DNA from: Actinomycetota bacterium
Lineage (GTDB): Bacteria > Actinomycetota > Actinomycetes > Streptosporangiales > Streptosporangiaceae
DNA: 52,971 nucleotides
Reading direction: 5' to 3'
Assembly (NCBI GenBank): GCA_003140115.1
Contig: PLIQ01000179.1
Coordinates: 11,335-64,305, forward strand
The first letter of the stretch is position 1, and each line of letters starts with the position of its first letter. The position numbers and the translations under genes are program-made. The notes under the pieces are model-generated. The model worked only from the letters and a program-made list of their open reading frames with translations. It made no database searches and was not told the DNA's origin. Shown here piece after piece: positions 18,653-52,971 of the stretch.

Positions 18653-19420
18653 TTACCAGTCTTTCTTTGCGTGCGCGGCGGTAGTACGGGTAAGGCCTTC
18701 CAGGTCAGCCTCAAGATCGGGCAGGGCCAGCAGGGTCGGCAGATCGGTCAGGCTTCTGGGGCGCAAGGTGATCGCGCCAAGCGCGGACTTCACCTGACCC
18801 CCGCCGCCTACCAGCAGGTGCCGCCGGGTCCAGGGTTCGGGCTCATCGGTGTCGGCTACCGCCACCGCATGCAGGAACCATCTGCCATCCGGGACTCTCG
18901 GTAGCCAGTACGGGTGCGTTCGCTGTGACGTCACATCGAGCAAGGTGGCCGCTTGCGGTCGGCGCTGCAAGATCCGTGTATCGAAGATCCCGACGTACAC
19001 GCGGGCCACGGCGTACCCTTCCGGAAGCCGGATCGTACCCATCGCCGCGCCTTCTGGCACCGGCGAATCGGGCAGCATGGCCCACACGCTGACCCGGTCG
19101 TGGTGCGACGCATGGCGGAACCGGCTCGGGGAGATGCCCACGCTGTCGGTGAAATGGCTCGTGAATGAGCCGAGGCTGCTGTAGCCGACCGCGGACGAGA
19201 CTCCGGCCACGCTCATCGCACTCATGAGAAGCATGCGCTTGGCCCGGTAGATACGGACCGCGGCCAGGAACCGACCGGGCGATACACCGGTCTGCTCCTT
19301 GAAGACGCGGGAGAAGTGGAAGCGGCTGAGCATGGCGCTGTGAGCCATGTCAGCGAGCGACAGCGGATCACCGTACCGCTCCCAGATGCAGCTGACCGCC
19401 TCGTCTACGGCGCTCTTCAT
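18653..19420 (-). CDS. AraC-family regulator with N-terminal HTH (paralogue 1)
   Basis: A 255-residue protein with the AraC DNA-binding domain at residues 1-105 (SLADMAHSAMLSRFHFSRVF is the first helix-turn-helix, followed by GYSSLGSFTSHFTDSVGISP) and a C-terminal domain of about 140 residues. That C-terminal part contains VYVGIFDTRILQRRP and EPWTRRHLLVGGGG, closely shared with the regulator at 28162-28959. Having the HTH first is unusual because most AraC proteins have it last. ATG 19420 is strongly supported by GGAGGG. It is divergent from a TetR gene, with a TTGCATAAC inverted repeat between them. Confidence 0.9.
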   Translation of the reverse strand: MKSAVDEAVSCIWERYGDPLSLADMAHSAMLSRFHFSRVFKEQTGVSPGRFLAAVRIYRAKRMLLMSAMSVAGVSSAVGYSSLGSFTSHFTDSVGISPSRFRHASHHDRVSVWAMLPDSPVPEGAAMGTIRLPEGYAVARVYVGIFDTRILQRRPQAATLLDVTSQRTHPYWLPRVPDGRWFLHAVAVADTDEPEPWTRRHLLVGGGGQVKSALGAITLRPRSLTDLPTLLALPDLEADLEGLTRTTAAHAKKDW

Positions 19421-19456
19421 GCGGTCCCTCCGCACTGACTTCGCCAGCGAAAAAAC

Positions 19457-19482
19457 CGTTGCATAACAGTGTTGTGTTATGA
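19457..19482. promoter_or_regulatory. imperfect inverted repeat with TTGCATAAC
   Basis: TTGCATAAC at 19459-19467 faces an imperfect partner GTTATGAAC at 19476-19484, with eight bases between. It sits in the 93-base gap between divergent AraC and TetR genes, 36 bases upstream of the AraC start, so it is a candidate operator for either regulator. The longer stretch CGTTGCATAACAG is shared exactly with 26729-26741. Confidence 0.55.
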
Positions 19483-19513
19483 ACAGTAACGGCGCCATGC
19501 GATCCTGTCAAGC

Positions 19514-20176
19514 GTGAGCCCGCGCCGCCAAAACCCGGACAACCGCACCACATTGATCGATGCCGCCGCGAGGCTGGTCGCGGAGGGAGGTCCGCGCAGC
19601 TTGTCCGCTCGCCTGCTGGCCAGGGAGGCAGGCACATCGACCATGGCCGTGTACACGTACTTCGGCAGCATGAGCGCGATCGTGCGAGAGATCGTGCACG
19701 ACGGATTCGCGCGTCTCAAGCGCCTGTTCGATCTCGTGGAAGCCACCGACGATCCGGTCGCCGACCTGGCTCTGCTGGGGCGGGTCTACCGCCACAACGC
19801 CATTACCAACCGGCACGTGTTCGAGGTGATGTTCGGCGGTTCGTCTCTCGCGGGCTTCGCGCTCACCGAGGAAGACCGCCAGCATGGCCGGTATACGCTG
19901 ACCACCGTCGTTGACTACGCGTACCGATGCACAGCCGCCGGGCGCTTCCAGCCGGAGGATCCGGTGCTCACCGCCCATCACATGTGGCTCGGCGTACACG
20001 GGACGGTGCTGCTCGATGTCGGGGGCTACCTGGTCCCACCGTACGATGCGAGCCGGTGCTTCGAATCGCAGCTCGTCAGCCTGATGATCGGAGCCGGGGA
20101 TGATCCGGTGAGCGCCGCTCGGTCGGTAACGGTGTCTGGCGAGCGCTTCGAGGCCGGTTTCGGGCGGGCAACCTAA
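19514..20176 (+). CDS. TetR-family regulator with WHG C-terminal domain
   Basis: A 220-residue TetR repressor. The N-terminal HTH reads LIDAAARLVAEGGPRSLSAR then AREAGTSTMAVYTYFGS, and the C-terminal ligand domain carries MWLGVHG, the tryptophan-His-Gly signature of the TetR_C_33/WHG group. GTG 19514 is the likely start; there is no clear ribosome site, so the mRNA may be leaderless. It faces the AraC gene and is followed 75 bases later by the TIGR03084 gene, a possible target. The ligand is unknown. Confidence 0.9.
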   Translation: MSPRRQNPDNRTTLIDAAARLVAEGGPRSLSARLLAREAGTSTMAVYTYFGSMSAIVREIVHDGFARLKRLFDLVEATDDPVADLALLGRVYRHNAITNRHVFEVMFGGSSLAGFALTEEDRQHGRYTLTTVVDYAYRCTAAGRFQPEDPVLTAHHMWLGVHGTVLLDVGGYLVPPYDASRCFESQLVSLMIGAGDDPVSAARSVTVSGERFEAGFGRAT

Positions 20177-20251
20177 GAGGTGGTTCCTCACTTAGGCGCA
20201 GGTCATGATGCCGAGGAGACTCCCCGTCATCATCCAGCGAGAGGCAGCGCC

Positions 20252-21049
20252 GTGAGTGTTCCGACCGATGTGTATGCCGACCTGAAGACAGAGGGCGAAA
20301 TCCTGGACCAGTTGGTGGCGGGCCTTGATGCCGAGCAGTGGGACCTGCCGACTCCCGCGCCCGGATGGACGATCAAGCACCAGGTTGCTCACCTGTCCTC
20401 GACGGCCCGTATCGCTGGAATCTCGGCGTCGGATCCCGAGCTGTTCGCCAAGGTGACGGTCGGGGCCGACCAGGACTTCGACGCGGCGGTCACGGCCCTG
20501 CTGACGCCGTACCTCGATGCCTCGCCGGCAGACCTGCTGGCCCGCTGGCGCACCGAGCGCGGCGATGCCGTCAAGGCGCTCTCCGCCCTGCCACCCGCCC
20601 AGATGGTGCCCTGGGTGGCGCGGCAGATCCCGGCTAGCGCACTCGCCGCTGCGGGCCTCATGGAGCTGTTCGCGCACGGTCAGGACATCGCCGACACCAT
20701 CGGAGCGCCCCGTGAGTACACCGACAGGATCGGGCACCTGGCCTGGTTCGGCACGCGCAATCGTGATTTCGCCTACCTGGTGCGCGGCCTCACGCCTCCC
20801 GACGTCGAGTTCCGGTATGAGCTCACGGCACCTTCCGGGATCCAGTGGGAGTTCGGCCCAGCCGGCGCCGAGAATCAGATAACGGGTCCGGCGGTGGACT
20901 TCTGCATGCTCGTCACGCGGCGACGGCACCGCGCCGATCTGGCCATCCAGGCCACCGGTCCGGAAGCTGACAAATGGCTGGATATCGCGCAGGCGTACCG
21001 CGGCTCACCTGGACCTGGCCGGGAGCCCGGACAGTTCGCCAAGCAATAA
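20252..21049 (+). CDS. TIGR03084-type metal-binding protein (DinB/maleylpyruvate isomerase-like fold)
   Basis: A 265-residue protein of the actinobacterial family that shares the four-helix metal-binding domain of mycothiol-dependent maleylpyruvate isomerases. The characteristic histidines are in WTIKHQVAHLSS and in LFAHGQDIADTIG. GTG 20252 is chosen with AGAGG upstream and gives the family start VSVPTDVYADLKTEG. A role in mycothiol-dependent chemistry or detoxification is plausible for the fold, but this subfamily is uncharacterised. It runs toward the CMD-like gene and ends before a strong terminator. Confidence 0.85.
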   Translation: MSVPTDVYADLKTEGEILDQLVAGLDAEQWDLPTPAPGWTIKHQVAHLSSTARIAGISASDPELFAKVTVGADQDFDAAVTALLTPYLDASPADLLARWRTERGDAVKALSALPPAQMVPWVARQIPASALAAAGLMELFAHGQDIADTIGAPREYTDRIGHLAWFGTRNRDFAYLVRGLTPPDVEFRYELTAPSGIQWEFGPAGAENQITGPAVDFCMLVTRRRHRADLAIQATGPEADKWLDIAQAYRGSPGPGREPGQFAKQ

Positions 21050-21068
21050 CGCGCGTCGCAAGCACAGC

Positions 21069-21098
21069 GGCGGGGAGGTCCAGCCGGACCTCCCCGCC
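21069..21098. terminator. strong bidirectional terminator
   Basis: Perfect 13-base arms GGCGGGGAGGTCC and GGACCTCCCCGCC enclose a four-base AGCC loop. It lies between the convergent ends of the TIGR03084 and AhpD/CMD-like genes. An outer AGCAC/GTGCT pair extends the stem. Confidence 0.9.
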
Positions 21099-21117
21099 CT
21101 TAGTGCTGAACGAAGGA

Positions 21118-22179
21118 TTACGGCTGCCCGGCTGGGTCCGGGGCCTGCTCGCGCAGCCACGAGCCGGCCGTGCGGGCCACCGCCATGCTCGCCCAGGACG
21201 TGAGGCTGATCACCGCCTCGTCCCCGGACTTCGCCGTTGACCGGAAGCCGTCGACGTCGGCCTTGCCCACCTGGTACGGGGCGAACGCCGTGAGGATGGC
21301 CAGCCGGCCAGCAGGCCGGTCTGTCTCGTCCAGCCCGGCCACTGCCTCATCGGCCCAGGCCCGGCTCGGACCCAGCGGCAGCCCATCCCAGGTCCGCAGT
21401 CGGTCGGCCACCAGTTCGCGGACGGGCATCGTGACGACCTGAGCCGCCGCATCCTCGACGGCCGCGGCCGCGCCAGCCAGTGCCGCCGCGATGCGGGAAT
21501 CGGTGGCTGCCCAGGAGAACTCTTCGGGCAGCTGCGCGTCGGGCAGAGCCTCCAGTGAGGCACCGGGGATCGGACTGCCCGAGGTCATCGCCGAAGCGAG
21601 CATGCCCATGACCCAGCCGCCAATCGCCTTCGGTGTCATGGGCGGCAGTGGCGACGGGGGGAGGAAGATGGTGACCATCCGGTTCAGGTACTGGAATGTC
21701 ACCGCCACCCCAGCGAGTTCAGCGAAATTGCCCGGGGGCGGGGACTGAAGGGACCCGCGCAGGCCGCTCGACCTGGCCCACCTGGCGATGTCCTTCAGCA
21801 GCGGGCTCGCCAGGTCCCCGGAGGCAATCCCGGCCGCGTCGAGCCCCGGGACCAGCTCCTGGGCCGCGGCAGTATGGATCGCGACGCAGTACGGGCAGGT
21901 GTTCGCCACCGATACCTCGGCGGCCACCACCTCCTTCTCGGGCCGGTCCGCCTGACCGGTGACCAGGAGAGTTTCCCTGAGCATGGCCCACGCCGCGGCC
22001 AGCACCGGCGGGTTCGGTGAATGAAGGGCCAGCGGCGGCGCAACCATGCCGAAGTCTCGCTCGGCCTGAGCGTAGACACTGGCGACGAGGCCGTCAGCGG
22101 TATCGGGCAGGACCGGGGATACGTACCGGATCTGGGCTAGTGACCGGCGCAGCCCGTTCGCCATGATCGCGCTTTTCAT
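21118..22179 (-). CDS. AhpD/carboxymuconolactone decarboxylase-like protein
   Basis: A 353-residue protein whose middle carries NTCPYCVAIHTAAA, the CxxC-x-x-x-H thiol motif of the AhpD/CMD family, in a protein about twice the usual AhpD length. Family members are peroxidase-like or decarboxylase-like; here it may reduce a peroxide or disulfide. ATG 22179 overlaps the GMC oxidoreductase stop by four bases (ATGA), so it is coupled to it. It is the last gene of a leftward unit with the GMC and DUF5987-like genes, which suggests a role in enediyne core oxidation or in protection from the product. I cannot assign it to a named enediyne gene. Confidence 0.85.
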   Translation of the reverse strand: MKSAIMANGLRRSLAQIRYVSPVLPDTADGLVASVYAQAERDFGMVAPPLALHSPNPPVLAAAWAMLRETLLVTGQADRPEKEVVAAEVSVANTCPYCVAIHTAAAQELVPGLDAAGIASGDLASPLLKDIARWARSSGLRGSLQSPPPGNFAELAGVAVTFQYLNRMVTIFLPPSPLPPMTPKAIGGWVMGMLASAMTSGSPIPGASLEALPDAQLPEEFSWAATDSRIAAALAGAAAAVEDAAAQVVTMPVRELVADRLRTWDGLPLGPSRAWADEAVAGLDETDRPAGRLAILTAFAPYQVGKADVDGFRSTAKSGDEAVISLTSWASMAVARTAGSWLREQAPDPAGQP

Positions 22180-23849
22180 CGCGCGACCAGAGCGGGCAGC
22201 AGGGGCATGACCGCACGTGCGGCGCTCGTCGCGCCGTCCGGCGCGGGAGCACCGTATTTGACCGGTATGCCCCGTTCCTGCGCGGCCCGGACGATTCCCG
22301 GGACGGCGCGCTCCGCCAGTGCCGCGATGGTCAGCGCTGGGTTGACGGTGAGCGCACCGGGTACCGCGGAGCCGTCGGTGACGAAGATGCCCGGATGGCC
22401 GCGCAGCTCGTGCCGGTGATCCAGCGCGGAGGTGGCCGGGTCGTCGCCGATGCGGCATGAGGACAGCGGGTGCACCGTGTAGGCACCTACCAGGTCGTTC
22501 GTCCACGGCCGCACCCGGGCCAGGCCGTCCCGTTCCAAGATGTCCTTGATCTCCGCGTCGGCCAGTTCCCAGCCGTGCAGCGTCTCCTTGGTGGGCTCGT
22601 ACGCGAGAGCGCCGCGGCCCAGCATCTGCTGCGAGATACGGACGGAATTGCCAGTGGGCGGCGGCGGCCCGAACACGCCTTCATTGTTGTCCTCCGACAG
22701 GATGAAGATCGTCAGCCACGACTGCCAGTGCCGCAGCATCTCCTTCTTCTCCGGCCCGAACCAGCCCGGGCCCTCGACGCCCGGCGCCTGCGCCAAGATG
22801 GTGCCCAGACCCGGCGGGAAGTACAGCTGCTCGAGGGCGAACCGGGAGAACTCGGGCAGCGAGCCATCGAGGTGATCCCAGGACACCACGGTCGGGCCAC
22901 GGCCGATCTGGTTCGCCGCGTAGGCCCTGCCGTCGGGACGGGACAGGCCCAGCACCTCGCGGGCCTTCTCCTCGTCGATGATGGCCGTATTGAGCCGCTC
23001 GCCGTTACCGGAGAAGTACCGGCCGACGCCGTGCGGCATCTTGCCGAGGTCGGCCTCCGAGCGTTGCAGGATCACCGGCGTGGCCGCCGTGCCAGCCGCC
23101 ACGATCACGATCTTGGCGTCGATTGCGCCGCCGCCGGTGGTTTCCCGGTAGTCCTCGTCATCGATGACGTTGTAGTGCACCCGGTACAGACCATCGGCTT
23201 TGGATATCTTCTGCACCTCGTGCAACGGCCTGATCTCCGCGCCGTGCGAGACCGCCGCGGGCAGGTAGTTCAGCAGCAACGACCGTTTCGCGTCGAAGCG
23301 GCAGCCGGCCATCATCCAGTTGCAGTTGGTGCACTTCGAGACGTCGATCGCGACGTTGGGCAGGTTGGCGGTCCGCCCGGCATGGTTGCAGGCGGCGGCC
23401 CACAGGCCACCGGGGTAAGGGACCTGCTCCCAGGTCTGATGACTGATCGGCAGAGCCTCGGTCACCCGGTCGTACCAGGGGTCCAGGGTGTCACGGTTGA
23501 TGACCGACGGCCACATCCGCCTGCCTATGCTGCCCTGGCGCTCGAACACGAACCCCGGCGCTCGCGGCATCGTGGCGAAGTACACCACGCTGCCACCGCC
23601 GACGCAGTTGCCGCCGAGCACGCTCATGCCGTCGCCTGCGACGAAGTCGAAGATCCGCGTGCTGGACGTGCCAAGCTCGAAGCCGTGGTCAAACTCGTCA
23701 CTCGGAACCCACGGCCCGCGCTCCAGAACCACCACCTTGGCCCCGCCCGCCGCTAGGTGATAAGCCGTGATCGCGCCGCCGAAGCCGCTGCCGATCACCA
23801 CGATGTCGGTTTGCTCAGCGCTGGTGTGGGTTGGCCTGGCGTTCGTCAT
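22176..23849 (-). CDS. GMC-family FAD oxidoreductase (cholesterol-oxidase-like)
   Basis: A 557-residue GMC oxidoreductase. The FAD-binding loop is VVIGSGFGGAITAYHLA near the N-terminus, a cysteine cluster C-T-N-C ... GC.FDAKRS lies near residue 175, and the C-terminal active site shows VHPLSSCRIG and VTVNPALTIAALAE-like sequence with the catalytic His and Asn. It would oxidise an alcohol or related group using FAD and oxygen. Nine-membered enediyne clusters encode an oxidoreductase of this kind (E9 in C-1027 terms, from memory), so a core-tailoring role is likely. ATG 23849 overlaps the upstream gene stop by four bases, and GGAG precedes it. Confidence 0.9.
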   Translation of the reverse strand: MTNARPTHTSAEQTDIVVIGSGFGGAITAYHLAAGGAKVVVLERGPWVPSDEFDHGFELGTSSTRIFDFVAGDGMSVLGGNCVGGGSVVYFATMPRAPGFVFERQGSIGRRMWPSVINRDTLDPWYDRVTEALPISHQTWEQVPYPGGLWAAACNHAGRTANLPNVAIDVSKCTNCNWMMAGCRFDAKRSLLLNYLPAAVSHGAEIRPLHEVQKISKADGLYRVHYNVIDDEDYRETTGGGAIDAKIVIVAAGTAATPVILQRSEADLGKMPHGVGRYFSGNGERLNTAIIDEEKAREVLGLSRPDGRAYAANQIGRGPTVVSWDHLDGSLPEFSRFALEQLYFPPGLGTILAQAPGVEGPGWFGPEKKEMLRHWQSWLTIFILSEDNNEGVFGPPPPTGNSVRISQQMLGRGALAYEPTKETLHGWELADAEIKDILERDGLARVRPWTNDLVGAYTVHPLSSCRIGDDPATSALDHRHELRGHPGIFVTDGSAVPGALTVNPALTIAALAERAVPGIVRAAQERGIPVKYGAPAPDGATSAARAVMPLLPALVAR

Positions 23850-24409
23850 GCCGGGTCTCCGTTCGGTGTCGTGGCCGGGTGCGCGCGGGCGAGCTGACGG
23901 CCGTAGCTGAAATCGGGAAACCGCCATAGGCCGTCGGGATCGGGTTTCGCGAATCCCATCGTCGTCAGGCCGGGGTGGCCGTTTTCCATTGCGCGCACGG
24001 TGTTCATATGGGCCGCCGTGTCGAAAGCCATGAAGCAGAACAGCGCGGTGAGGACCCAGAATTCTTTCTCTGGGTGATCGGGCGCGGTCAGGATCCGCAT
24101 CAGTGCCGAGCGATGCTCGTAATCCAGCGCGACGAACGGCGGTACGGCGGCATCGAGCGTTATGTCGTGCTCGGCCGCGTAATCGCTCGCGTGGTCGTTC
24201 AGGGTGCTGACGATGTCGTCCAGACCGGAGGCAACACCGGTCGCGGGCATCTCAAGAAGTTCGATGGCGCCGGCCATGACCGCTCCCGGGCCCGGTGCGG
24301 CGCCGGCGATCGCGACATCGTCAGGCGAGCGCTTCTCCCCCGGGACAAACGTGTCAGCGAATGCCTCCAGGGTCAGTGTCCTGCTGGCTGTTTCTGCCGA
24401 GGTATCCAA
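23846..24409 (-). CDS. DUF5987-like protein, partner of GMC oxidoreductase
   Basis: A 187-residue protein starting LDTSAETASRTLTLEAFADTFVPGEKRSPDD. It resembles the short proteins (DUF5987-type) encoded just before GMC oxidoreductases, somewhat like the small subunit of gluconate/sugar dehydrogenases that carries a Tat or chaperone function; here no signal peptide is seen. The TTG at 24409 is the only start with a good site (GGGAGG). It overlaps the GMC gene by four bases, so the two probably form a complex. A match to enediyne gene E8 is possible but from memory and unverified. Confidence 0.7.
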   Translation of the reverse strand: MDTSAETASRTLTLEAFADTFVPGEKRSPDDVAIAGAAPGPGAVMAGAIELLEMPATGVASGLDDIVSTLNDHASDYAAEHDITLDAAVPPFVALDYEHRSALMRILTAPDHPEKEFWVLTALFCFMAFDTAAHMNTVRAMENGHPGLTTMGFAKPDPDGLWRFPDFSYGRQLARAHPATTPNGDPA

Positions 24410-24464
24410 CTTTCCTCCCGTCGGCCGGGACCACCTGTCCTTAAGAATTGTGCTGCGCCCGGCG

Positions 24465-24496
24465 CGGGATAACTTCTCTTGTTCTGTCTTATCCCG
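24465..24496. promoter_or_regulatory. inverted repeat upstream of the DUF5987-GMC-CMD operon
   Basis: CGGGATAA (24465-24472) pairs perfectly with TTATCCCG (24489-24496) across a 16-base loop rich in T and C. It lies in the 221-base gap between the DUF1702 gene stop and the DUF5987-like start. It could be an operator or a hairpin that separates the two transcripts. Nothing else is seen in this gap. Confidence 0.4.
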
Positions 24497-24630
24497 GACC
24501 CTGTGGACGAAAAGCAAGCAGCGAGAAGAACGCCGGATAGGCGGCGAGGTTCGCCATCGGACGGGGCTTTTCGGCATCGGTGAATTCGCCCGGTGATGCG
24601 AGAGCAGGAGAAGGAAGCGGTCAGCCGGGA

Positions 24631-25599
24631 TCAGGCGTCGAAGTGCGCGCGTATCCGCTGCCGCCACAGCTCATAGGCGGGCTCAGGTCCTGCATCGGCC
24701 GCCGTCGGGGCGGTGCCGTCGGCGAGCGAGACGGCCTTGTCCACGGAGATACCCGCCAGTGCTGAGCAGGCGGCCTGCGTGTGGTCCGGCACCAGACCGG
24801 AGTAAGCGCGTGCCTTCGCGGCGAACACCGAGCCGAGAGCGAGCTGCGACCAGTCATCGCCTGCCGCCCGCCGCAGCGTGGCCAGGCCTTCCTCGTCACA
24901 TCCGCCGGCGAACGTCGCGGCCAGTCCGATGCCGCTCCACAGGTCCGGCTGCCGTCCACTGGCGAAGCGTCCCGCCGCCGCCGCGACATCCGGTGCGACA
25001 GCACCGCAGATGAACCACAAAGCGCGCCCGATACCCTGATCAACCGCGCGCAGAAAGTAGGCTGGCGCACCCTCCCAGGGGTAAGGCGCGGGAACTTTCT
25101 GGGCGTCCACCCAGCGCCGGGTGTCGAAGTAGGCACGGTCGAAGCCAAAGCCATCGACCGCGAGCCAGCTCATCGTCGGGTAGTAGGGATCGGGGGTCAG
25201 GTCCGGGACGACCTTCTTCCACAACGGCCTGGGCAGCCTGGCCATCGCAAAACCCATCCCGATGTACGCGAGGAAGATATGTCGGCTTCCCGGGCCGGCC
25301 AGCAGGTCACGAGTGCGGTGCCCGCGTCCCATCGCGTCCAGGACGGTGAACGCCATCGTCACGCCTTCGTAGGCAAAGCCGCGCTGTTCGGCGTCCACCA
25401 GGTCCAGCCGCCGTTCCACCTCCCATTGGTCACGCGCGTCAATCCCCCACTCGAAGCCGCAGATCACGGCCTCCGGGATAGCCTCGAGCCGCTGGGTAGC
25501 GGCCGACGGGGTGGCCGGAAAGCCACGCTTGGCGAACGTAACTTCCCTGAGCTGGGGCGTGAGCACCCGTCTGCGTACCGATCCGAGGCTAGTAGGCAT
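24631..25599 (-). CDS. unbL: enediyne biosynthesis protein, DUF1702 family (UnbL-like)
   Basis: A 322-residue soluble protein with the DUF1702 pattern: FAYEGVTMAFTVLDAM, a GPGSRHIFLAYIGMGFAMAR stretch, and VDGFGFDRAYFDTRRW. DUF1702 proteins are a conserved member of enediyne cassettes (UnbL, E3 in C-1027 terms), needed for the warhead but with no agreed reaction. ATG 25599 is preceded by GGGAGA. Unlike in many clusters, it is not beside PksE but about 8 kb away, with two-component and AraC genes between. Same strand as the GMC unit and as the PksE operon. Confidence 0.8.
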   Translation of the reverse strand: MPTSLGSVRRRVLTPQLREVTFAKRGFPATPSAATQRLEAIPEAVICGFEWGIDARDQWEVERRLDLVDAEQRGFAYEGVTMAFTVLDAMGRGHRTRDLLAGPGSRHIFLAYIGMGFAMARLPRPLWKKVVPDLTPDPYYPTMSWLAVDGFGFDRAYFDTRRWVDAQKVPAPYPWEGAPAYFLRAVDQGIGRALWFICGAVAPDVAAAAGRFASGRQPDLWSGIGLAATFAGGCDEEGLATLRRAAGDDWSQLALGSVFAAKARAYSGLVPDHTQAACSALAGISVDKAVSLADGTAPTAADAGPEPAYELWRQRIRAHFDA

Positions 25600-26345: not shown

Positions 26346-26514
26346 GCAAGCCACCGAAACCGCGTCAACCTGCTGGTATTGTCACGCACTGGCAATCTCC
26401 TCTCGGCACATGTCCGCTTTCGCGCTACGCAGGTCGTGCGGGCCCGCCATGAGATGTCAGCACATGAGGCCAGACGGCGTTATGCGCCAGAGGTTTCGAG
26501 GCGAGGCAAGCGCA

Positions 26515-28160: not shown

Positions 28161-28161
28161 C

Positions 28162-42190: not shown

Positions 42191-42394
42191 GTTTCTACCT
42201 CACAGCTGACAAGTAGCGTTGCCTGGGACATGGCGGCATGTCGATGTGCATACGCCTCAAATCTGCGGCAGCCGCCGTCCCGCTCCCATCTCGGACCTTG
42301 CTCATTGCATGAGAATCCCTGGCCATGAGAGCAATTCACGAGAAGCCCGGAACCGTATCGCGTCGTATAACGTCGGTGAAGGAGAGTGCATGGC
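42191..42394. promoter_or_regulatory. divergent promoter region, UnbV operon versus TetR
   Basis: These 204 bases must hold the promoter of the main enediyne operon and that of the TetR gene. Seen here are a direct repeat of CATGAGA (42308-42314 and 42324-42330, spaced 16) inside an inverted repeat TTGCTC (42298-42303)/GAGCAA (42329-42334). These are candidate TetR operator elements. GGAGAG at 42381-42386 is the TetR ribosome site. No TTGCATAAC copy is present. Confidence 0.55.
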
Positions 42395-46400: not shown

Positions 46401-46407
46401 TTCTCGC

Positions 46408-47784
46408 TCAGCCGAGCCGGAGCGGCGCGTCGGGCGACGCCAGGACCTGGCGTAGCACCTGCGAGAACTCCTCCGCCATCGCGGCGATGGTCGCCTCGCC
46501 GAAGATGTTGCGCTTGAACGTGATCGCCGCGATCATGTCGCCCGACGGGGCGGCGCTCAGCGTCCACAGGACCCCGTCCGGCATGGCCGAGGTCCGCTCC
46601 TGGCCCCGCGGCTCCCGCGATATCTCGACGAACTTCAGGTCGCCAGGGGTGTTATCGGCGAGCATGACCGGGTCGGGGAACACCTGGAACACAGCGGCGG
46701 CCGCGTTATCGGACATGGCGGGCCCCATCAGTTCTGGCGCCAGGCCGAAGATGTGGATGCTCGGGATGTCACGAGAGTAGGCGTCCAGGCAGGTCCGGCG
46801 GGTCCGCTCCAGTACTTCGCGGAACGTCGCGCATCCGGTGAGTTCGGTGCGCAGCGGGATGAAGTTAAAGAACGACCCGACGGTGTCCTCGAACCGCCGA
46901 CCGCCGCGGCCCGGGGTAAAGGTCGCCACGATGACGTCCTTGGACTCGAGCTTTCGCTGGACGACGATCTGATACGCGGCGAGCAGCACGATGGCGGTCG
47001 TGCTGCGGCTCGCGGCGGCCAGCTTCGTAGCGGCGGAGGCCAGGTCGGCGGGGATCGAGAAGCGGTACGCGCCGGTTGTATGCGGCACGCCGGCCGACCG
47101 GGCGAAGTCGGTGGGCAGCGCGCTGATCAGGGCGCCCGACAATGCTTTGCGCCAGTAATCGATGGCGCCGGCCGGCTGAGCGTCGGACGCCTCGCGGCTC
47201 CAGGCGGCAAATTCCCGGTACTGCGGCGCCTTCGGCAACTCGGGCACGTCGAAGCCCTGATGGGCCGCGTAGCGGTTGACCAGATCGCGGATGATCAGCC
47301 GTACCGACCAGCCGTCGGTGGCGATGTGGTGCGTGATCAGGGCGAGCACCGAGTCCTGGTCGTCGAACCTGGCGAGCACTGCCTTGATCAGCGGCGGCTG
47401 ATTCGCGTCGATCTCGCCGTTCTCGAGCTCCCTGATCAGTTCCTCTGCCTGCTGATCACGTGACTTCCCCGGCTCGGCGGGTAGGTCACGCACCGAGAGC
47501 TCAGGCGTCGAAGCAGGAAATATTTCCTGGTACTTGTCGTCGCCGTCGCGCACGATCACGGTGCGCAGCGCCTCGTGCCGTTCCACTACATTGCGCAGCG
47601 CGCGCCGCATCGCGACGGCATCGACGTGCCCGGTGACGCGCCAGGCCTCGACGATGTGGTAATGCGGACCGAACGGCCCGTCCTGACCGCCGGAGTCGAA
47701 GAGGCAGACGAATTCCTGGTTCAGCGACAACGGGGCTCGCTCGGTCTCCGTCACCGCTGGCTGTCCGGCACTGGTGGTGCTCAT
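46408..47784 (-). CDS. free-standing NRPS condensation enzyme
   Basis: A 458-residue single condensation domain. The active-site motif HHxxxDG is H152-H-I-A-T-D157-G in THHIATDGWS, and the later VGSFFNFIPLRTEL segment matches the family. Stand-alone C enzymes in nine-membered enediyne clusters (SgcC5 in C-1027) join a PCP-bound acyl group to an enediyne-core alcohol, forming an ester or amide; the same role is likely here. ATG 47784 overlaps the ThDP-enzyme stop by four bases and has GAAGGAG upstream. It is the last gene of the leftward A-PCP/ThDP/C unit. Confidence 0.92.
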   Translation of the reverse strand: MSTTSAGQPAVTETERAPLSLNQEFVCLFDSGGQDGPFGPHYHIVEAWRVTGHVDAVAMRRALRNVVERHEALRTVIVRDGDDKYQEIFPASTPELSVRDLPAEPGKSRDQQAEELIRELENGEIDANQPPLIKAVLARFDDQDSVLALITHHIATDGWSVRLIIRDLVNRYAAHQGFDVPELPKAPQYREFAAWSREASDAQPAGAIDYWRKALSGALISALPTDFARSAGVPHTTGAYRFSIPADLASAATKLAAASRSTTAIVLLAAYQIVVQRKLESKDVIVATFTPGRGGRRFEDTVGSFFNFIPLRTELTGCATFREVLERTRRTCLDAYSRDIPSIHIFGLAPELMGPAMSDNAAAAVFQVFPDPVMLADNTPGDLKFVEISREPRGQERTSAMPDGVLWTLSAAPSGDMIAAITFKRNIFGEATIAAMAEEFSQVLRQVLASPDAPLRLG

Positions 47785-49481
47785 GGTTCACGCTCCTTCT
47801 CGCGGATATCCGTGTTGTGGGCCAGCTGATGCCTGCCGGGGTATTCGGCAACTACGTCGGGCACGACCTTGCAGTCGAGCAGGTAGGTGCCGTGGCCGCC
47901 CGTCTCGTTCCAGGCGCGCAGCCCAGCCAGGTCGGCGAGGGTGCGCACCGTGGCCGACTTGGCGCCGAATGAGCGAGCCACGGCGGCGAAGTCGGCATCG
48001 CCGAAGGTTGCGGGGCTGGTGTCGGCGACCAGCGGGCGGTACATGTGGACCTCCGCGCCGTAGCCGGAGTCGTTGAATATCACCACGAGCGCGGAGTGCG
48101 CGACGCGGATGAGGGTCTCGAGCTCAGGCAGCCCCATCAGCGCGCCGCCGTCGCCAAGGGCCACGACCGTCGTCCGGTCCGTTCTGCCGACCGCAGCACC
48201 GACCGCGCCCGCGAAGCCGAGACCGATGGTCTGCAGCGCCGCGCCGGTGAATACGAGCGCGGACGGGTCGGCGGACGGCCAGTACATAGCCGGCCACCCG
48301 ACGAAGTGGCCGCCGTCCATGACCAGCGTCCTTTCCGCCGGCAGCAGGCCGGCCAGGGCCAGCGACAAGGTCCTCGGGTCGATCCGGCTGACCGTGCTCG
48401 CGTCGTCGTACGCCTCGTGCTCCCAGTCGGCCGGCCCGATGTCAGCTGCCACCTCGTCTCGCCAGCTAGCTGCCACCAGGCCGCGGGCGCGCACGCCGTC
48501 CAGCAGAGCGCTGGCGACCCGCGCCGCGTCGCCCGTGACGCACAGGTCAACCCGGCTCACAGTCGGGGCGGCGCCCAGATCGACCTGCACGAGCGTGGCG
48601 CCTGGATTGAGCACTATGCCGCCGTGCAGCGTGAACTCGTTCAGGCTCGCCCCGAACGCGACGACCACATCGGCCTCGCCCATGAGCCGGGCGGCCCGCG
48701 GCGAGGCGAAGCCACCGCAGATCCCGAGCGACCACGGGCTGTTGCGGAACAGGCCGCCGGCCATCACCGTGGTCGTAAGCAGCGCGCCGATCCGGTCAGC
48801 GAGCACGGCGATTGGCAGCGCGGCGCCGGAACGGTACGCTGCGAGCCCGGCGAGCAGCAGCGGGCGCCGCGCGCTGGCCAGGACGTCAAGCGCCGCGTCG
48901 AGCTGGCGGGCAGCCGACACCGGGCGAAGGTCAGACCCAGAGCATGTGCGGGGCAGCTCATGACAGGCGGGCTGGTCAGGCACACCGACGCCGAGCAGGT
49001 CGGCGGGCAGGCTGAGCACAACCGGGCGCGGGCCACCGCGCGCTAGCTCGAGCGCGCGGGCGACAGCCCCACGGGCCGTCGCCGGGTCGGTGACACGAAC
49101 GGTCCTAGCCCCCAGTACCGCGGCGAACGCGCCCTGGTCGATGTCGATCGGCCGCGGCCTGCCCGCCGGTTGGTCGCCGCTGAGCAGCAGTACGCCACTG
49201 CGGTGCTTGACCGCCTCGACCAGCCCGGTCGCGGTGTTGGTCAGGCCCGGCCCGTACGTGGTCGCGGCGACCGCGACCTCCCCCGTCGCCCGGTAATATG
49301 CGTCCGCCATCGCGACGGCCCCGCCCTCATGCCGGGCGGCGACGTACCTGGCGCCACCCGCCATGAGCCCGGCCACGGCGAGGAAGTTCGCGTTGCCGAC
49401 GACGCCAAACGCAACCCTGACCCCTTCGGCGGCAAGAGCCTGTCCCACCGTCGTCGCGAGCTTCGCCATGGCCGGCGTCAT
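47781..49481 (-). CDS. ThDP-dependent acetolactate-synthase-like enzyme
   Basis: A 566-residue thiamine-diphosphate enzyme of the acetolactate synthase/benzoylformate decarboxylase superfamily. The N-terminal catalytic glutamate is Glu52 in AARHEGGAVAMADAYYR, and the ThDP/Mg motif runs from GDG at about 443-445 to Asn at about 470 (FNDSGYG). The middle domain is present. It would decarboxylate a 2-keto acid and perhaps transfer the acyl unit. Its place between the C and A-PCP genes points to making or modifying the unusual acyl group rather than branched-chain amino acid synthesis. The start is ATG 49481; ATG 49469 is possible. Confidence 0.88.
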   Translation of the reverse strand: MTPAMAKLATTVGQALAAEGVRVAFGVVGNANFLAVAGLMAGGARYVAARHEGGAVAMADAYYRATGEVAVAATTYGPGLTNTATGLVEAVKHRSGVLLLSGDQPAGRPRPIDIDQGAFAAVLGARTVRVTDPATARGAVARALELARGGPRPVVLSLPADLLGVGVPDQPACHELPRTCSGSDLRPVSAARQLDAALDVLASARRPLLLAGLAAYRSGAALPIAVLADRIGALLTTTVMAGGLFRNSPWSLGICGGFASPRAARLMGEADVVVAFGASLNEFTLHGGIVLNPGATLVQVDLGAAPTVSRVDLCVTGDAARVASALLDGVRARGLVAASWRDEVAADIGPADWEHEAYDDASTVSRIDPRTLSLALAGLLPAERTLVMDGGHFVGWPAMYWPSADPSALVFTGAALQTIGLGFAGAVGAAVGRTDRTTVVALGDGGALMGLPELETLIRVAHSALVVIFNDSGYGAEVHMYRPLVADTSPATFGDADFAAVARSFGAKSATVRTLADLAGLRAWNETGGHGTYLLDCKVVPDVVAEYPGRHQLAHNTDIREKEREP

Positions 49482-49498
49482 TCCAGCTCGAACTGGAC

Positions 49499-51277
49499 TC
49501 AGGCCCGCGACTGCTGCAGGGCCTTCTCAACCTGCTGGTCAAGCTCGGCAACCGTGGGCGCGTCGAAGATGTCAGAGACCAGCAGCTCGATACTCAAACG
49601 GTCCTGGATCGAGCTGATCAGCCGCATGGCCATGAGCGACTCTCCGTGCAGCTCGAAGAAGCTGTCGTCGAGTCCGACCCTGGGCACCCCGAGGACCTCG
49701 GCGAACAGCGAGCAAAGGACCTCCTGCCGCGCGGTCTGGGGGGCGCGGTAGATCGACGAGACTTCCACGACAGGCTCGGGTAGTGCCTTGCGATCCACCT
49801 TGCCGTTCGGGGTCAGCGGCAGCGAATCAAGCGTGACGAACGCCGACGGCACCATGTACTCGGGCAGCAGCTCCGTCGCGTGCGCCCGCAGCCCGCCAAT
49901 GTCGAACGGCACAGTGTCGACCGGGCCCGCCTCGGCGACAGCGTAAGCGATCAGGCGCTTCTCGCCGTCCTCGACCTCGCGTGCGACCACCACCGTGTGC
50001 GCCAGCCCGTGGTATCTCGCGAGCACGCTCTCGACCTCGGCCAGTTCGACCCGGTAGCCACGGATCTTGACCTGGTCGCCAGAGCGTCCGACGAATTCGA
50101 TCAGCCCGTCCTGCCGCATCCGCACTTGGTCCCCCGTGCGGTACATGCGCTGACCAGCCCCGTCGAACGGATCGGCGACGAAACGCTCGGCCGTGACGTC
50201 GGGCCGCCGGTAGTAGCCGCGGGCGAGGCGGTCACCGGCGACGTAGAGGTCACCGACCTCACCCGTCGGCAGCGCCCTGAGGTCCTCGTCGAGCACGTGC
50301 AGCCGGGTGTTGTCCATGCCGCGTCCGACCGGCACGGTCAGGCCCATGGAGTAGGGGGCCCGCATCGGCGAATTGGTGATAAACGCCGCCAGCTCGCTCG
50401 CGCCGTAGGTCGCGCGGACCACGGTGTCAGGGCACGCCTGGAGCACCTGCTGCACCGCCTTGGCCGAGATCACGTCGCCGCCGGTCAGCACCTCACGCAC
50501 GCCAGCGAAGCACTCCGGCGCCTCGTCGGCGACGACCCGGAACAGGCCAGCCGTCACGTGCACGGCGGAGATCTGGTGCTCGGTGATCAGCCTCCGCAAG
50601 GTGCCGACGTCGAGGTGGCCTGGCGGTGCGAGGACTAGGCGGCCACCGCGCAGCAGCGGCACCCACAGCTCGTAGGTGGACACGGCGAACGCATACGGCG
50701 CCAGCATCAAGATCCGCTCCTGGCCCCCGCCGTCCCAGCAGGAATCGAGGGCCAGCCCGAGAACGCCGCGGTGGGTGACGGCGACTCCCATCGGGTCGCC
50801 GGTCGAGCCCGAGGTGTAGATCACGTGCACCAGATGATCAAGCCCGGTCCGCACGTCGGGGTCGGTGCCGGGCAGCGAGCGCTGTTCTGCGTCCGAGTCC
50901 ACGAAAACAACCGTGGGAACCTCGGGCAAGCCGCGCTCGCGCATGATCGCGTCCGCTAGCAGCACGGGCCGGTCCACGCTGTCGGCGATCCACTGCAGGC
51001 GCGGCAACGGATATGCACTGTGTAGGGGCAGGTACAGGGCGCCGGCTTTCACGATGCCCAAGATCGAGGCAACCATCTCGACGGACCGCTCCTGAAGCAC
51101 CATGACCGGGTCTTCTGGCCTGACGCCCAGGCCGAGCAGCCGGTGCGCAATGCGATTGGCCCGCTCGTCGAGCTCGGCGTAGGTAAGCGCCTGCGCGGGC
51201 GACGACACCGCGATCGCGTCCGGCGTCCGCGCCATTACCCAGGCAAAGCGCTCCTGAACGGAATTGGAATCCACCAT
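49499..51277 (-). CDS. NRPS adenylation-PCP didomain
   Basis: A 592-residue A-PCP protein. Core motifs are YTSGSTGDPMG (A3), YGASE (A5), RMYRTGDQVR (A7), GRSGDQVKIRGYRVE (A8) and the C-terminal LTPNGKVDRKALP (A10) lysine. The PCP carries Ser547 in FFELHGESL. At the A4 pocket the usual FDAS start is FAVS, so the Asp that holds the alpha-amino group is Ala; this fits a beta-amino, hydroxy, keto or other non-alpha-amino acid (SgcC1-type logic). ATG 51277 is the start. It is first of a leftward unit with the ThDP and C enzymes, 17 bases from the ThDP gene. No condensation domain is fused. Confidence 0.93.
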   Translation of the reverse strand: MVDSNSVQERFAWVMARTPDAIAVSSPAQALTYAELDERANRIAHRLLGLGVRPEDPVMVLQERSVEMVASILGIVKAGALYLPLHSAYPLPRLQWIADSVDRPVLLADAIMRERGLPEVPTVVFVDSDAEQRSLPGTDPDVRTGLDHLVHVIYTSGSTGDPMGVAVTHRGVLGLALDSCWDGGGQERILMLAPYAFAVSTYELWVPLLRGGRLVLAPPGHLDVGTLRRLITEHQISAVHVTAGLFRVVADEAPECFAGVREVLTGGDVISAKAVQQVLQACPDTVVRATYGASELAAFITNSPMRAPYSMGLTVPVGRGMDNTRLHVLDEDLRALPTGEVGDLYVAGDRLARGYYRRPDVTAERFVADPFDGAGQRMYRTGDQVRMRQDGLIEFVGRSGDQVKIRGYRVELAEVESVLARYHGLAHTVVVAREVEDGEKRLIAYAVAEAGPVDTVPFDIGGLRAHATELLPEYMVPSAFVTLDSLPLTPNGKVDRKALPEPVVEVSSIYRAPQTARQEVLCSLFAEVLGVPRVGLDDSFFELHGESLMAMRLISSIQDRLSIELLVSDIFDAPTVAELDQQVEKALQQSRA

Positions 51278-51625
51278 GTTGCCCCGATCCGACTATTCGT
51301 GACAGCCGCCGCGCAGCCCAAGCTGCGCGGATCCGATCCAACTCGCACCGCGCACGTCTAAGGCGACGATGACAGCGGCCCGCTGTCACCTGCATCTCCC
51401 GGATTGCGCTCGGCATTTGTGCAGCGCAATCCGAGAGATGCGCCACCTAAGGTCAGATGTCACCGTCGGGAATGCAGGACGGCGATAGCCGGCAGGAAAG
51501 GCCGTGCCCACCGGGCGCCGCCGGATTGGCTGCACGACAGCTAGCAGCTGGCCCTGGCGTGAACCGGTGATCCAGGACGCCAGCGCCGCTTGTAGTGCAG
51601 CGGGCCAGGCAAGGAGGCAACCGTG
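51278..51625. promoter_or_regulatory. divergent region with a long inverted repeat
   Basis: This 348-base gap lies between the A-PCP and FAD-monooxygenase genes, which point away from each other. It holds TGACAGCG-GCC-CGCTGTCA (51370-51388) and, at 51392-51441, a 19-base inverted repeat (arms GCATCTCCCGGATTGCGCT and AGCGCAATCCGAGAGATGC) with one mismatch and a 12-base loop. No gene is convincing here. Because no gene ends in this gap, these are more likely operators or a structured leader than terminators. AGGAGG at 51612-51617 is the ribosome site of the monooxygenase. Confidence 0.6.
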
Positions 51626-52971
51626 ATGCAGGACCAGCATGGAGAACGCGCAGTGGTGCTCGGCGGTGGCATGGCTGGCCTGTTGGCCGCCCGTGTCCTC
51701 GCCGATAAGTACGCCGACGTCGTCGTCGTGGATCGCGACGAGCTGACCGGCGTGACCGGCTTCCGCAACGGCGTACCGCATGGTCGCCACGCGCACTGCC
51801 TGGTCGCCAGGGGCCAGGAGATCTTTGAGGAGCTGCTCCCTGGGCTCACTGCGGGAATGAAAGAGGCCGGGGTCACGCTCGGCGACTTCAACGGCCAGAT
51901 CCAGTGGAACTTCAACGGCCACCGGCTAGCGGCGTCGGACTCGGACCTGGTGTGCGTGTCGTCCGGCCGGCCGATACTCGAGGAGCACGTCCGAAGGCAC
52001 GTCCAGGCCATTCCCAACGTGCGCTTCCTCGAGCAGTACGACATCGTGGGCCTGGAGACAACGCCGGACAAGATGCGGGTCACCGGGGCGCGGATCCAGC
52101 GTCGCGAGCAGGGTAGCGAACCCGAGGTGCTGTCCGCCGACCTGGTGGTCGACGTCACCGGCCGCGGCTCGCGGATGCCGGCCTGGCTGCGTGAGCTCGG
52201 CTACGAGGCGCCGCCGGAGGACAGGATCAAGGTCAACCTGGCCTACACCACGCGGCATTACCGCTTCAAGCGCAACCCGTTCACCACCGACATCGCGATC
52301 AACCAGGCCGGGACGCCCGCGTTTCCGCGCGGCGTGTTCTGCTACCTCTTGCCTGACGGCGAGACCGTCGAGCTGTCCCTCACCGGGGTCCTCGGCGACC
52401 ACGCGCCAACGGACCCCGAGGGCTTCCTCGCCTACATCAAGTCGCTGCCGCTCCCCGACCATTACGAGTACGTCCACGACGCGGAACCGGTCGACGAGCC
52501 GGTGCAGTTCAAGTTCCCCGCCAGTGTCTGGCGCCACTACGAGCAGCTGACCCGCTTCCCCGGCGGCCTGCTGGTGATGGGCGACGCCGTGTGCAGCTTC
52601 AACCCGGTCTACGCCCAGGGCATGACCGTCGCCGGGATGGAGGCGCTGACGCTGCGCAAGCACCTGCAGATCCCCGGACCGCTGAACGCGGCCGCGTTCT
52701 TCGGCGAGATGGCAGGCCAGATCGCCGGGCCGTGGCAGTTCTCCGCCATCGCCGACCTCGGCTACCCGGGCGTCGAGGGCGAGCGGACTGACGAGATCCG
52801 CCTGATCAACCAGTACATCCCGGCGGTCCTAGGCGCCGCGGCGTACGACCCGGTCGTCACCGACGCCTTCTTGCGAGTGGCCGGGCTGGTCGCGGACCCC
52901 ATGTCGCTGATGAGCCCGGACATCGCAATCCGGGTGGGGCGGGTGCTGCAACGTGCCGGGCGCCCGTCGGC
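51626..52971 (+). CDS. FAD-dependent monooxygenase (partial, runs off window)
   Basis: At least 448 residues with no stop before the window edge. The N-terminal dinucleotide fold is VVLGGGMAGLLAARVLA (residues 10-26) and the second FAD motif is MGDAVCSFNPVYAQGM with GDA at 319-321, as in PHBH-type and epoxidase-like flavoproteins (2-polyprenyl-6-methoxyphenol hydroxylase family). The tryptophan-rich W-x-W-x-I-P motif of flavin halogenases is absent, so a halogenase call is not supported. ATG 51626 has AGGAGG upstream. It probably hydroxylates or epoxidises a pathway intermediate; the substrate is unknown. It is divergent from the A-PCP gene. Confidence 0.9.
   Translation, partial: MQDQHGERAVVLGGGMAGLLAARVLADKYADVVVVDRDELTGVTGFRNGVPHGRHAHCLVARGQEIFEELLPGLTAGMKEAGVTLGDFNGQIQWNFNGHRLAASDSDLVCVSSGRPILEEHVRRHVQAIPNVRFLEQYDIVGLETTPDKMRVTGARIQRREQGSEPEVLSADLVVDVTGRGSRMPAWLRELGYEAPPEDRIKVNLAYTTRHYRFKRNPFTTDIAINQAGTPAFPRGVFCYLLPDGETVELSLTGVLGDHAPTDPEGFLAYIKSLPLPDHYEYVHDAEPVDEPVQFKFPASVWRHYEQLTRFPGGLLVMGDAVCSFNPVYAQGMTVAGMEALTLRKHLQIPGPLNAAAFFGEMAGQIAGPWQFSAIADLGYPGVEGERTDEIRLINQYIPAVLGAAAYDPVVTDAFLRVAGLVADPMSLMSPDIAIRVGRVLQRAGRPS

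What the first reader, a model, noticed from the sequence alone, without database searches (positions are those of the whole stretch)
18653..52971. Enediyne gene cluster with all five cassette families but a split layout
The sequence shows PksE, hot-dog thioesterase, UnbU, UnbV and a DUF1702/UnbL-like protein. Established knowledge is that these five together mark enediyne warhead pathways. Here UnbL is about 8 kb from PksE, with a two-component system and an AraC regulator between. The flavin reductase, P450 and GMC oxidoreductase suggest a nine-membered core, and the acyl-group genes do not obviously match the C-1027, neocarzinostatin, kedarcidin or maduropeptin sets as I recall them, so the product may be new.
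Basis: partly seen in the sequence, partly recalled or inferred. Interest (0 to 1): 0.85.

Follow-up and report, generated by a model that had tools for sequence, protein, structure and literature searches.

The report
Predicted nine-membered enediyne biosynthesis gene cluster
This is a genuine but ordinary-in-kind enediyne antibiotic gene cluster from an uncultured actinobacterium; its marker genes predict a nine-membered warhead, one supposed cassette gene turns out to be a different paralogue, and the decorating acyl group looks unlike the best-known ones.

Summary
The cluster is real. PksE, E10 thioesterase, UnbU/E5 and UnbV/E4 lie together (30.8-42.2 kb with E6/E7) and pass Pfam cut-offs. 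The fifth call needs correcting: the only DUF1702 gene (24631-25599) is the E2 paralogue, not E3/UnbL (E2 clade 100/100; 59% to the SgcE2-position gene, 39% to the SgcE3-position gene). No E3 is in the window, which ends inside the cluster, so it holds four of five cassette genes. E2 is the published marker for nine-membered cores; E2, DUF5987 and GMC occur in the same 7 of 20 PksE genomes, so a nine-membered core is well supported. Flavin reductase and P450 are not diagnostic; split layouts have precedents. PksE belongs to a metagenomic/Streptosporangiaceae clade (relatives to 94%), 53% identical to SgcE. The acyl-transfer genes (A-PCP, TPP enzyme, SgcC5-like condensation enzyme) and a LasC/MonCI-type epoxidase are not unique: one Streptosporangiaceae MAG has them at 75-89%, four Streptomyces plasmids at 38-60%. 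The adenylation pocket lacks the Asp that binds an alpha-amino group, suggesting an aryl keto or hydroxy acid. Verdict: new member of a known kind; product unknown.

The parts
17581..18645 (+). Meth_synt_2 family protein; possible outermost cluster-associated gene
   Evidence: Pfam; 70% homologue upstream of the C-1027 genes and 75-76% in G001/G002, beside a CMD gene in each; but in only 9 of 20 PksE genomes: 6 of 7 E2-plus and 3 of 13 others
18653..19498 (-). AraC-type regulator
   Evidence: HTH_18/HTH_AraC
19514..20176 (+). TetR-type regulator
   Evidence: TetR_N, TetR_C_33; 68% in G002
20180..21049 (+). MDMPI_N/DinB protein (TIGR03084-type)
   Evidence: Pfam; homologues annotated TIGR03084 in C-1027 and five other enediyne plasmids, 48-54%
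21118..22179 (-). E11-like CMD/alkylhydroperoxidase protein (ORF trimmed to 353 aa)
   Evidence: CMD; 47% to the C-1027 alkylhydroperoxidase gene
22176..23927 (-). GMC oxidoreductase (E9 type); longest ORF, true start uncertain
   Evidence: GMC_oxred_N/C; 73-84% homologues; same 7 of 20 genomes as E2
23846..24667 (-). DUF5987 protein (E8 type); start uncertain
   Evidence: DUF5987 293 bits, residues 95-273; same 7 of 20 genomes
24631..25599 (-).
   Evidence: DUF1702 464 bits; E2 clade 100/100
25731..26354 (-). response regulator (LuxR type)
   Evidence: Response_reg + GerE
26874..28160 (+). sensor histidine kinase
   Evidence: HisKA_3
28162..28959 (-). AraC-type regulator
   Evidence: HTH_18/HTH_AraC; 66-67% in G001/G002
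29247..30812 (-). acyl-CoA carboxyltransferase beta-type subunit
   Evidence: Carboxyl_trans; 66% homologue beside AraC in G003 contig C341; none in the 18 loci
30800..32182 (-). cytochrome P450 (E7)
   Evidence: p450; 18 of 18 loci
32179..32721 (-). flavin reductase (E6)
   Evidence: Flavin_Reduct; 18 of 18 loci
32718..33188 (-). hot-dog thioesterase (E10)
   Evidence: 4HBT_2; CalE7/DynE7 hits
33154..39162 (-). enediyne polyketide synthase PksE, 2002 aa
   Evidence: KS-AT-ACP-KR-DH; motifs; many homologues named enediyne polyketide synthase by JGI
39159..40205 (-). UnbU / E5 membrane protein
   Evidence: NQR2_RnfD_RnfE; 50-71% in 16 of 18 loci
40202..42190 (-). UnbV / E4
   Evidence: UnbV_ASPIC, FG-GAP
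42386..42949 (+). TetR-type regulator
   Evidence: TetR_N
42983..43543 (+). CMD/peroxidase-related protein
   Evidence: CMD; TIGR01926 above cut-off
43665..44849 (-). group-D flavin monooxygenase (acyl-CoA dehydrogenase fold; HsaA/XiaF type)
   Evidence: PDB hits 3-HSA hydroxylase, XiaF, C2 hydroxylase; 49% in C-1027, 83% in G003
45147..46343 (+). beta-lactamase-fold serine hydrolase
   Evidence: Beta-lactamase; SMTK motif; 86% in G003
46408..47784 (-). stand-alone condensation enzyme (SgcC5-like)
   Evidence: Condensation; best PDB hit 4znm, 413 bits against 141 for the next; HHIATDG motif; 89% in G003, 46% in C-1027
47781..49481 (-). ThDP (TPP) enzyme of the acetolactate-synthase superfamily
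   Evidence: TPP_enzyme N/M/C; RHEGGA and GDG...N motifs; 81% in G003
49499..51277 (-). adenylation-PCP didomain, pocket AVYHLGTAFK (Ala at the 235 position)
   Evidence: AMP-binding + PP-binding; code by alignment; PCP serine in GESL; 88% in G003
51623..52969 (+). FAD monooxygenase of the LasC/MonCI epoxidase type; runs off the window end
   Evidence: PDB hits LasC/Lsd18 and MonCI; E <= 1e-100 in the same 7 of 20 genomes as E2; aligned homologue stretches 435-445 aa, so nearly complete

Best explanation
A nine-membered enediyne biosynthetic gene cluster in an uncultured relative of Streptosporangiaceae MAGs, apparently chromosomal and cut by the window's right end. PksE (self-primed iterative PKS) with E10 makes the linear polyene; E4, E5, the E2-type DUF1702, E6/E7, E8/DUF5987, E9/GMC and E11 turn it into a nine-membered core (inferred from conservation; chemistry not shown). 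A LasC/MonCI-type epoxidase probably epoxidises the core; an epoxide hydrolase, seen in relative G003 but not in the window, would open it. The A-PCP didomain loads an aryl acid without an alpha-amino group (for example a 4-hydroxyphenyl keto or hydroxy acid), the ThDP enzyme makes or alters that acid, and the SgcC5-like enzyme transfers it to the core as an ester. E3 most likely lies beyond the right edge. Shown: gene families, E2 identity, co-occurrence, pocket residues. Inferred: the core size, every reaction and the product.
For: Family calls. Window DUF1702 in the E2 clade, 100/100. The E2 rule for nine-membered cores in PMC5181780. E2, DUF5987 and GMC in the same 7 of 20 PksE genomes, E3-type in 20 of 20. 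LasC/MonCI-type gene at E <= 1e-100 in the same 7 of 20. SgcC5-like condensation enzyme (46% to the C-1027 gene). A-PCP, TPP and C genes contiguous (4-bp overlap, 17-bp gap) and 81-89% conserved in G003, with O-methyltransferase, HpaB-type hydroxylase and epoxide hydrolase on the same contig. PksE and TPP-enzyme hits share 5 contig lengths in the protein database, shifted-length control mean 0.2, maximum 2. Kinship: the flanking prolyl oligopeptidase gene is 67-74% in G001-G003 and has no match at E <= 1e-60 in 8 of 8 other genomes.
Against: No E3 in the window although 20 of 20 genomes have one. PksE is sister to a Streptomyces/Kitasatospora clade that is mostly E2-minus (11 of 12 rows) and includes CB01950, predicted ten-membered in PMC5181780. 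No epoxide hydrolase, HpaB, methyltransferase or apoprotein in the window. The best epoxidase match in G002 is 43% identical and in G001 56%, each on a contig other than the PksE contig, so the link may be paralogy there. The TPP gene is absent from C-1027 and found in 4 of the 18 loci (plus G003 on another contig), and its homologues also sit on very long contigs with no PksE length match, so it is not enediyne-only. A-domain positions rest on recalled GrsA numbering.
Confidence: 0.72

Rival explanations
1. The peripheral genes make a known kind of unit: a sporolide-like cyclohexenone/catechol acid (tyrosine-derived, as I recall) attached by a SpoT10-like condensation enzyme, so the product is a sporolide-type nine-membered enediyne rather than a new type.
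For: Sporolide's cyclohexenone epoxide unit is made by a 45-kbp set of NRPS genes (PMC8609351 passage). [quoted passage not shown] Group-D hydroxylases act in C-1027 and sporolide biosynthesis (PMC6165268 passage). Relatives carry HpaB, methyltransferase and prephenate dehydrogenase genes with the A-PCP, TPP and C genes (4 of 4 plasmids); G003 has HpaB and O-methyltransferase.
Against: No spo sequence was in any collection searched, so nothing was compared directly. The window itself lacks HpaB and the methyltransferase.
Confidence: 0.25
2. The cluster is decaying or non-functional: E3 was lost and part of the acyl module (hydroxylase, methyltransferase, second C domain) is gone.
For: E3 is absent beside E2, where it sits in 12 of 14 E2-plus loci; HpaB and methyltransferase, which flank the TPP gene in G003, are not in the window, and only one condensation gene was found. 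8 of the 26 chosen ORFs did not pass my third-position GC filter.
Against: The 26 ORFs are full length against homologues in most cases and 18 of 26 pass the GC filter; KS, AT, ACP, KR, DH, TPP, C, A and PCP motifs are conserved. In G006 E3 lies about 86 kb from E2, though there it is in two pieces.
Confidence: 0.1
3. The core is ten-membered, as PMC5181780 predicts for CB01950, whose PksE is 61-62% identical.
For: PksE tree: the window's clade is sister to the mostly E2-minus clade, 100/100.
Against: CB01950 and 12 other genomes lack E2, DUF5987, GMC and the epoxidase at the thresholds used, while the window has all four. NBC_00887 shows an E2-plus cluster nested in the same PksE clade.
Confidence: 0.05

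Closest known systems
C-1027 cluster (sgc), Streptomyces globisporus plasmid SGLP1, NZ_CP013739.1
   Same: PksE 53%, E4 45%, E5 53%, E10 64%, E6 51%, E7 54%, E2 59%, DUF5987 64%, GMC 75%, E11 47%, TIGR03084 49%, condensation enzyme 46%, epoxidase-type FAD gene 54%, group-D monooxygenase 49%
   Different: C-1027 has E3, apoprotein, halogenase, epoxide hydrolase, aminomutase, free PCP, HpaB, benzoxazolinate and sugar genes. Of these, queries for E3, apoprotein, halogenase, epoxide hydrolase, aminomutase, PCP and HpaB found no counterpart in the window (the halogenase query touched only the FAD gene, 25%, E 2e-4); benzoxazolinate and sugar genes were not queried. The window has an A-PCP didomain and a TPP enzyme that C-1027 lacks
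Streptosporangiaceae MAG JOPF032 (G003; contigs C530, C128, C148, C341), uncharacterised
   Same: A-PCP 88%, condensation 89%, TPP enzyme 81%, epoxidase 75%, hydrolase 86%, monooxygenase 83%, carboxyltransferase 66%, E2 69%, PksE 62%; that these contigs form one cluster is inferred
   Different: E3 is beside E2; extra condensation gene, O-methyltransferase, HpaB, epoxide hydrolase and larger NRPS genes
Streptosporangiaceae MAGs G001 and G002, uncharacterised
   Same: PksE 70% and E2 80% in both; G002 has GMC 83%, E4 78% and the same E4-E5-PksE-E10-E6-E7 order
   Different: E3 beside E2; best TPP match 46%, best condensation matches 36% (G002) and 41% (G001), all on other contigs, so probably a different periphery
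Streptomyces enediyne plasmids NBC_01237, NBC_00239, S. goshikiensis B-1662, NBC_00637
   Same: A-PCP 55-58%, TPP enzyme 57-60%, condensation 38-40%, epoxidase 52%, monooxygenase 49-51% in one stretch
   Different: PksE only 52-53%; also carry HpaB, methyltransferase, SgcJ-type and prephenate dehydrogenase genes

Membership tests
Enediyne PKS cassette (E3/E4/E5/E/E10) | iterative PksE with KS-AT-ACP-KR-DH and PPTase-like C-terminus | tested here: met
   the C-terminus has no Pfam PPTase match but aligns with SgcE's
Enediyne PKS cassette (E3/E4/E5/E/E10) | E10 hot-dog thioesterase | tested here: met
Enediyne PKS cassette (E3/E4/E5/E/E10) | E4 (UnbV) and E5 (UnbU) | tested here: met
Enediyne PKS cassette (E3/E4/E5/E/E10) | E3 (UnbL, DUF1702) | tested here: not met
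   within the window only: the sole DUF1702 is E2; the contig is cut at 52971, so absence from the genome is untested
Nine-membered enediyne cluster (E2 rule of PMC5181780) | presence of E2 | tested here: met
   rule read
Nine-membered enediyne cluster (E2 rule of PMC5181780) | absence of R3 | not tested
   R3 sequence not available; nothing run
Nine-membered enediyne cluster (E2 rule of PMC5181780) | companions of E2: DUF5987 and GMC (my addition, not part of the published rule) | tested here: met
   same 7 of 20 genomes
Chromoprotein-type enediyne | apoprotein gene | tested here: not met
   within the window, C-1027 apoprotein query: best E 0.35 over 17 residues; may lie outside
C-1027-type beta-amino acyl unit | MIO aminomutase plus SgcC1-type A domain and free PCP | tested here: not met
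   no aminomutase or free-PCP hit at E <= 1 in the window; A pocket differs from the C-1027 AMP-binding gene I take for SgcC1
Sporolide-type periphery | orthology to the SpoT genes | not testable with these tools
   no spo sequence in the collections reached
SgcC5-type condensation enzyme | closest solved relative 4znm, HHxxxDG motif | tested here: met
   that 4znm is SgcC5 is recalled; ester/amide activity not testable

The most novel reading that the evidence does not exclude
A nine-membered enediyne whose core is epoxidised by a polyether-type (LasC/MonCI) flavin epoxidase and then esterified by an SgcC5-like enzyme with a carrier-bound aryl keto or hydroxy acid shaped by a ThDP enzyme. In this A-domain family the alpha-amino-binding Asp has been replaced (D in NBC_00887, N in Nonomuraea, G in G003 and four plasmids, A in the window) inside an otherwise nearly constant pocket. 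The LasC/MonCI-type gene would be a so far unassigned nine-membered core enzyme.
Probability: 0.3. Interest if true: 0.62.

Novelty: new member of a known kind. Interest (0 to 1): 0.42.

Why it matters
Few enediynes are structurally known (11 in PMC5181780 of 2016, two of them developed into marketed drugs). This window places a metagenomic PksE clade, in which I saw no characterised member among the 120 hits listed, in the nine-membered group by its E2/DUF5987/GMC set. It shows that PksE similarity alone would have pointed to E2-minus clusters, and gives two testable assignments: an epoxidase that tracks E2-plus clusters, and an A-PCP/ThDP/condensation set for a non-amino aryl acyl group. It also warns that a DUF1702 hit by itself is not evidence of UnbL/E3.

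Tried and rejected
UnbL reading of the DUF1702 gene: rejected by tree and identity. Flavin reductase/P450 as nine-membered markers: rejected, in 18 of 18 loci. The Meth_synt_2 gene as a strict nine-membered marker: not supported (9 of 20 genomes: 6 of 7 E2-plus, 3 of 13 others). NCBIfam gave no match for E4, E5, DUF1702 and DUF5987, and none of the 25 shown of 100 PksE matches reached its cut-off. PDB search for DUF1702: no hit. A check of the recalled 4-hydroxyphenylglycine pocket code found no paper, so that likeness stays recall. Paper searches listed no paper that I recognised as describing this cluster; the library is open-access only and I saw listings, passages and, for PMC5181780, three of seven text parts. 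Whether the A domain takes hydroxyphenylglyoxylate, hydroxymandelate or hydroxyphenylpyruvate could not be decided. The length-matching control also gave two E3/TPP matches (2211 and 3106 bp), too short to mean anything.
Full report
What is there. Bases 1-17.5 kb look like ordinary chromosome: encapsulin, DyP peroxidase, CorA, prolyl oligopeptidase, PRPP synthase, adenylate kinase, SpoU methylase, GDPD. From about 17.6 or 18.7 kb to the window's end is an enediyne cluster. Its core block on the minus strand is E4-E5-PksE-E10-E6-E7 (42190 down to 30800), with overlapping gene ends, followed by a carboxyltransferase gene and an AraC gene; a second minus-strand block holds a response regulator, DUF1702, DUF5987, GMC and a CMD/alkylhydroperoxidase gene. 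To the right of E4 lie a TetR gene, a CMD gene, a group-D flavin monooxygenase, a serine hydrolase, a stand-alone condensation enzyme, a TPP enzyme, an A-PCP didomain and an FAD monooxygenase that runs off the edge. Of 26 chosen ORFs, 18 pass a third-position GC filter; the other 8 (both AraC, one TetR, the TIGR03084-type gene, E11-type, DUF5987, DUF1702 and the response regulator) rest on their family matches and homologues.

The fifth cassette gene is E2, not E3. The paper PMC5181780 (text parts 1-3 of 7 read) defines the cassette as E3/E4/E5/E/E10, shows E2 and E3 as separable subfamilies, and predicts nine-membered cores from E2 and ten-membered ones from R3. In the C-1027 plasmid the two DUF1702 genes are 59% and 39% identical to the window's. 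The 39% one is next to E4; that this is SgcE3 and the other SgcE2 is my recall of the sgc gene order, and it agrees with the name 'enediyne biosynthesis protein E3' that JGI gives many homologues of G002's paralogue of that type. In the tree of 41 DUF1702 proteins the window's falls in a 14-row clade with the SgcE2-position gene (100/100); the E3-type rows are not one clean clade, two of them (G001, G002) joining the E2 stem weakly (81/57). Ten E3-type queries found nothing else above noise in the window (five, five). So the window carries four of five cassette genes.

Nine-membered core. In 20 genomes with a related PksE, E2-type DUF1702 (66-81%), DUF5987 and GMC occur in the same 7 of 20 (G001-G006 and G019), while E3-type DUF1702 (41-46%; in pieces in G006 and G015) occurs in 20 of 20. 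The other 13 are Streptomyces and Kitasatospora strains, among them CB01950, which PMC5181780 predicts to be ten-membered. The window has E2, DUF5987 and GMC. The P450 and flavin reductase are in 18 of 18 loci compared, five of them E2-minus, so they do not discriminate. E-value limits were 1e-8, 1e-8 and 1e-100 respectively.

Layout. E3 sits directly beside E2 in 12 of 14 E2-plus loci (seven genomes, seven plasmid-collection records); the exceptions are G005 (4.5 kb between the starts, with E4 and E5 between) and G006 (about 86 kb apart, E3 in two pieces). In G002 the E3-E2 pair is about 20 kb from PksE. Separation of E2/E3 from PksE is thus not rare. What is unusual in the window is that E3 is missing from beside E2. 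If they are the same contig, the closest clade keeps E3 near PksE, and the window's E3 has probably moved beyond the right edge. The contigs themselves could not be read.

PksE phylogeny. In a 36-row tree the window lies in a 14-row clade of Streptosporangiaceae MAGs and database proteins (100/100) that is sister to a 12-row Streptomyces/Kitasatospora clade, 11 of whose rows are E2-minus; SgcE is in a separate 9-row clade, all E2-plus. Identity is 53% to SgcE, 70% to G001/G002, and 91-94% to seven listed database entries other than its own copy, over full length. The flanking prolyl oligopeptidase matches only G001-G003 of 11 genomes (67-74%). No named ten-membered PksE was available for the tree, and the data do not include NcsE, KedE, MdpE or the sporolide PksE.

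Peripheral genes. The condensation enzyme's best solved match is 4znm (413 bits, next 141), which I recall as SgcC5; it is 46% identical to the C-1027 condensation gene. The A-PCP, TPP and condensation genes are contiguous. In the MAG G003 they are 88, 81 and 89% identical, with an extra condensation gene, an O-methyltransferase, an HpaB-type hydroxylase and an epoxide hydrolase on the same contig. Four Streptomyces enediyne plasmids carry the same set at 55-58, 57-60 and 38-40%; Nonomuraea has the A-PCP (59%) and condensation gene (42%) without the TPP gene in the 50 kb looked at. Five contig lengths are shared between PksE and TPP-enzyme hits (control mean 0.2, maximum 2); other TPP homologues sit on long contigs without such a match. 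The set is therefore a recurring module, not unique to this window.

Adenylation pocket. Reading the ten pocket positions by alignment gives AVYHLGTAFK in the window, G at the first position in G003 and four plasmids, N in Nonomuraea and D in NBC_00887, the rest nearly constant; the C-1027 AMP-binding gene that I take for SgcC1 is quite different. The first position normally holds the Asp that binds the alpha-amino group (recalled from GrsA), so the window's enzyme probably takes an acid without one. The pocket resembles the 4-hydroxyphenylglycine code as I recall it; one search for that string found no paper. The acid could be a 4-hydroxyphenyl keto or hydroxy acid; this is inference.

Epoxidase. 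The FAD gene at the right edge matches LasC/Lsd18 and MonCI, the polyether epoxidases (E 3e-55 to 1e-47), is 54% identical to a C-1027 cluster gene annotated only 'NAD(P)-binding protein', and at E <= 1e-100 is found in the same 7 of 20 genomes as E2. In G002 the best match is 43% and in G001 56%, both on contigs other than those with PksE, so the association may be weaker than it looks. I propose that it makes the epoxide later opened by the epoxide hydrolase; no experiment that I saw supports this yet.

Verdict. A real enediyne cluster, most likely nine-membered, a new member of a known kind from an uncultured actinobacterial clade.

Noticed in passing
window 51623-52969; G003, G004, G005, G006, G019; C-1027 plasmid record 39812-41167: A LasC/MonCI-type FAD epoxidase gene tracks the E2/DUF5987/GMC set in 7 of 20 PksE genomes, weakly in G002.
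   Followed up: partly
window 49499-51277 and relatives: Natural series D/N/G/A at the alpha-amino-binding position of one A-PCP family with an otherwise nearly constant pocket.
   Followed up: partly
window 17581-18645 and 42983-43543; C-1027 plasmid record 14920-16703; G001 C140; G002 C72: A Meth_synt_2 gene and a CMD gene are neighbours in C-1027, G001 and G002 but about 24 kb apart in the window; possible overlooked enediyne-associated pair.
   Followed up: partly
G004 contig C4 610645-615741; G019 contig C80: A second, divergent PksE-like gene (44%) with a third type of DUF1702 in Actinomadura oligospora, and the same DUF1702 type in G019.
   Followed up: no
window 3962-5817: Encapsulin gene next to a DyP-type peroxidase gene, which I recall as a usual cargo pair.
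   Followed up: no
Streptomyces plasmid NBC_00887 (L022): An E2-plus cluster whose PksE nests inside the otherwise E2-minus Streptomyces/Kitasatospora clade, implying exchange or loss of the nine-membered set.
   Followed up: partly
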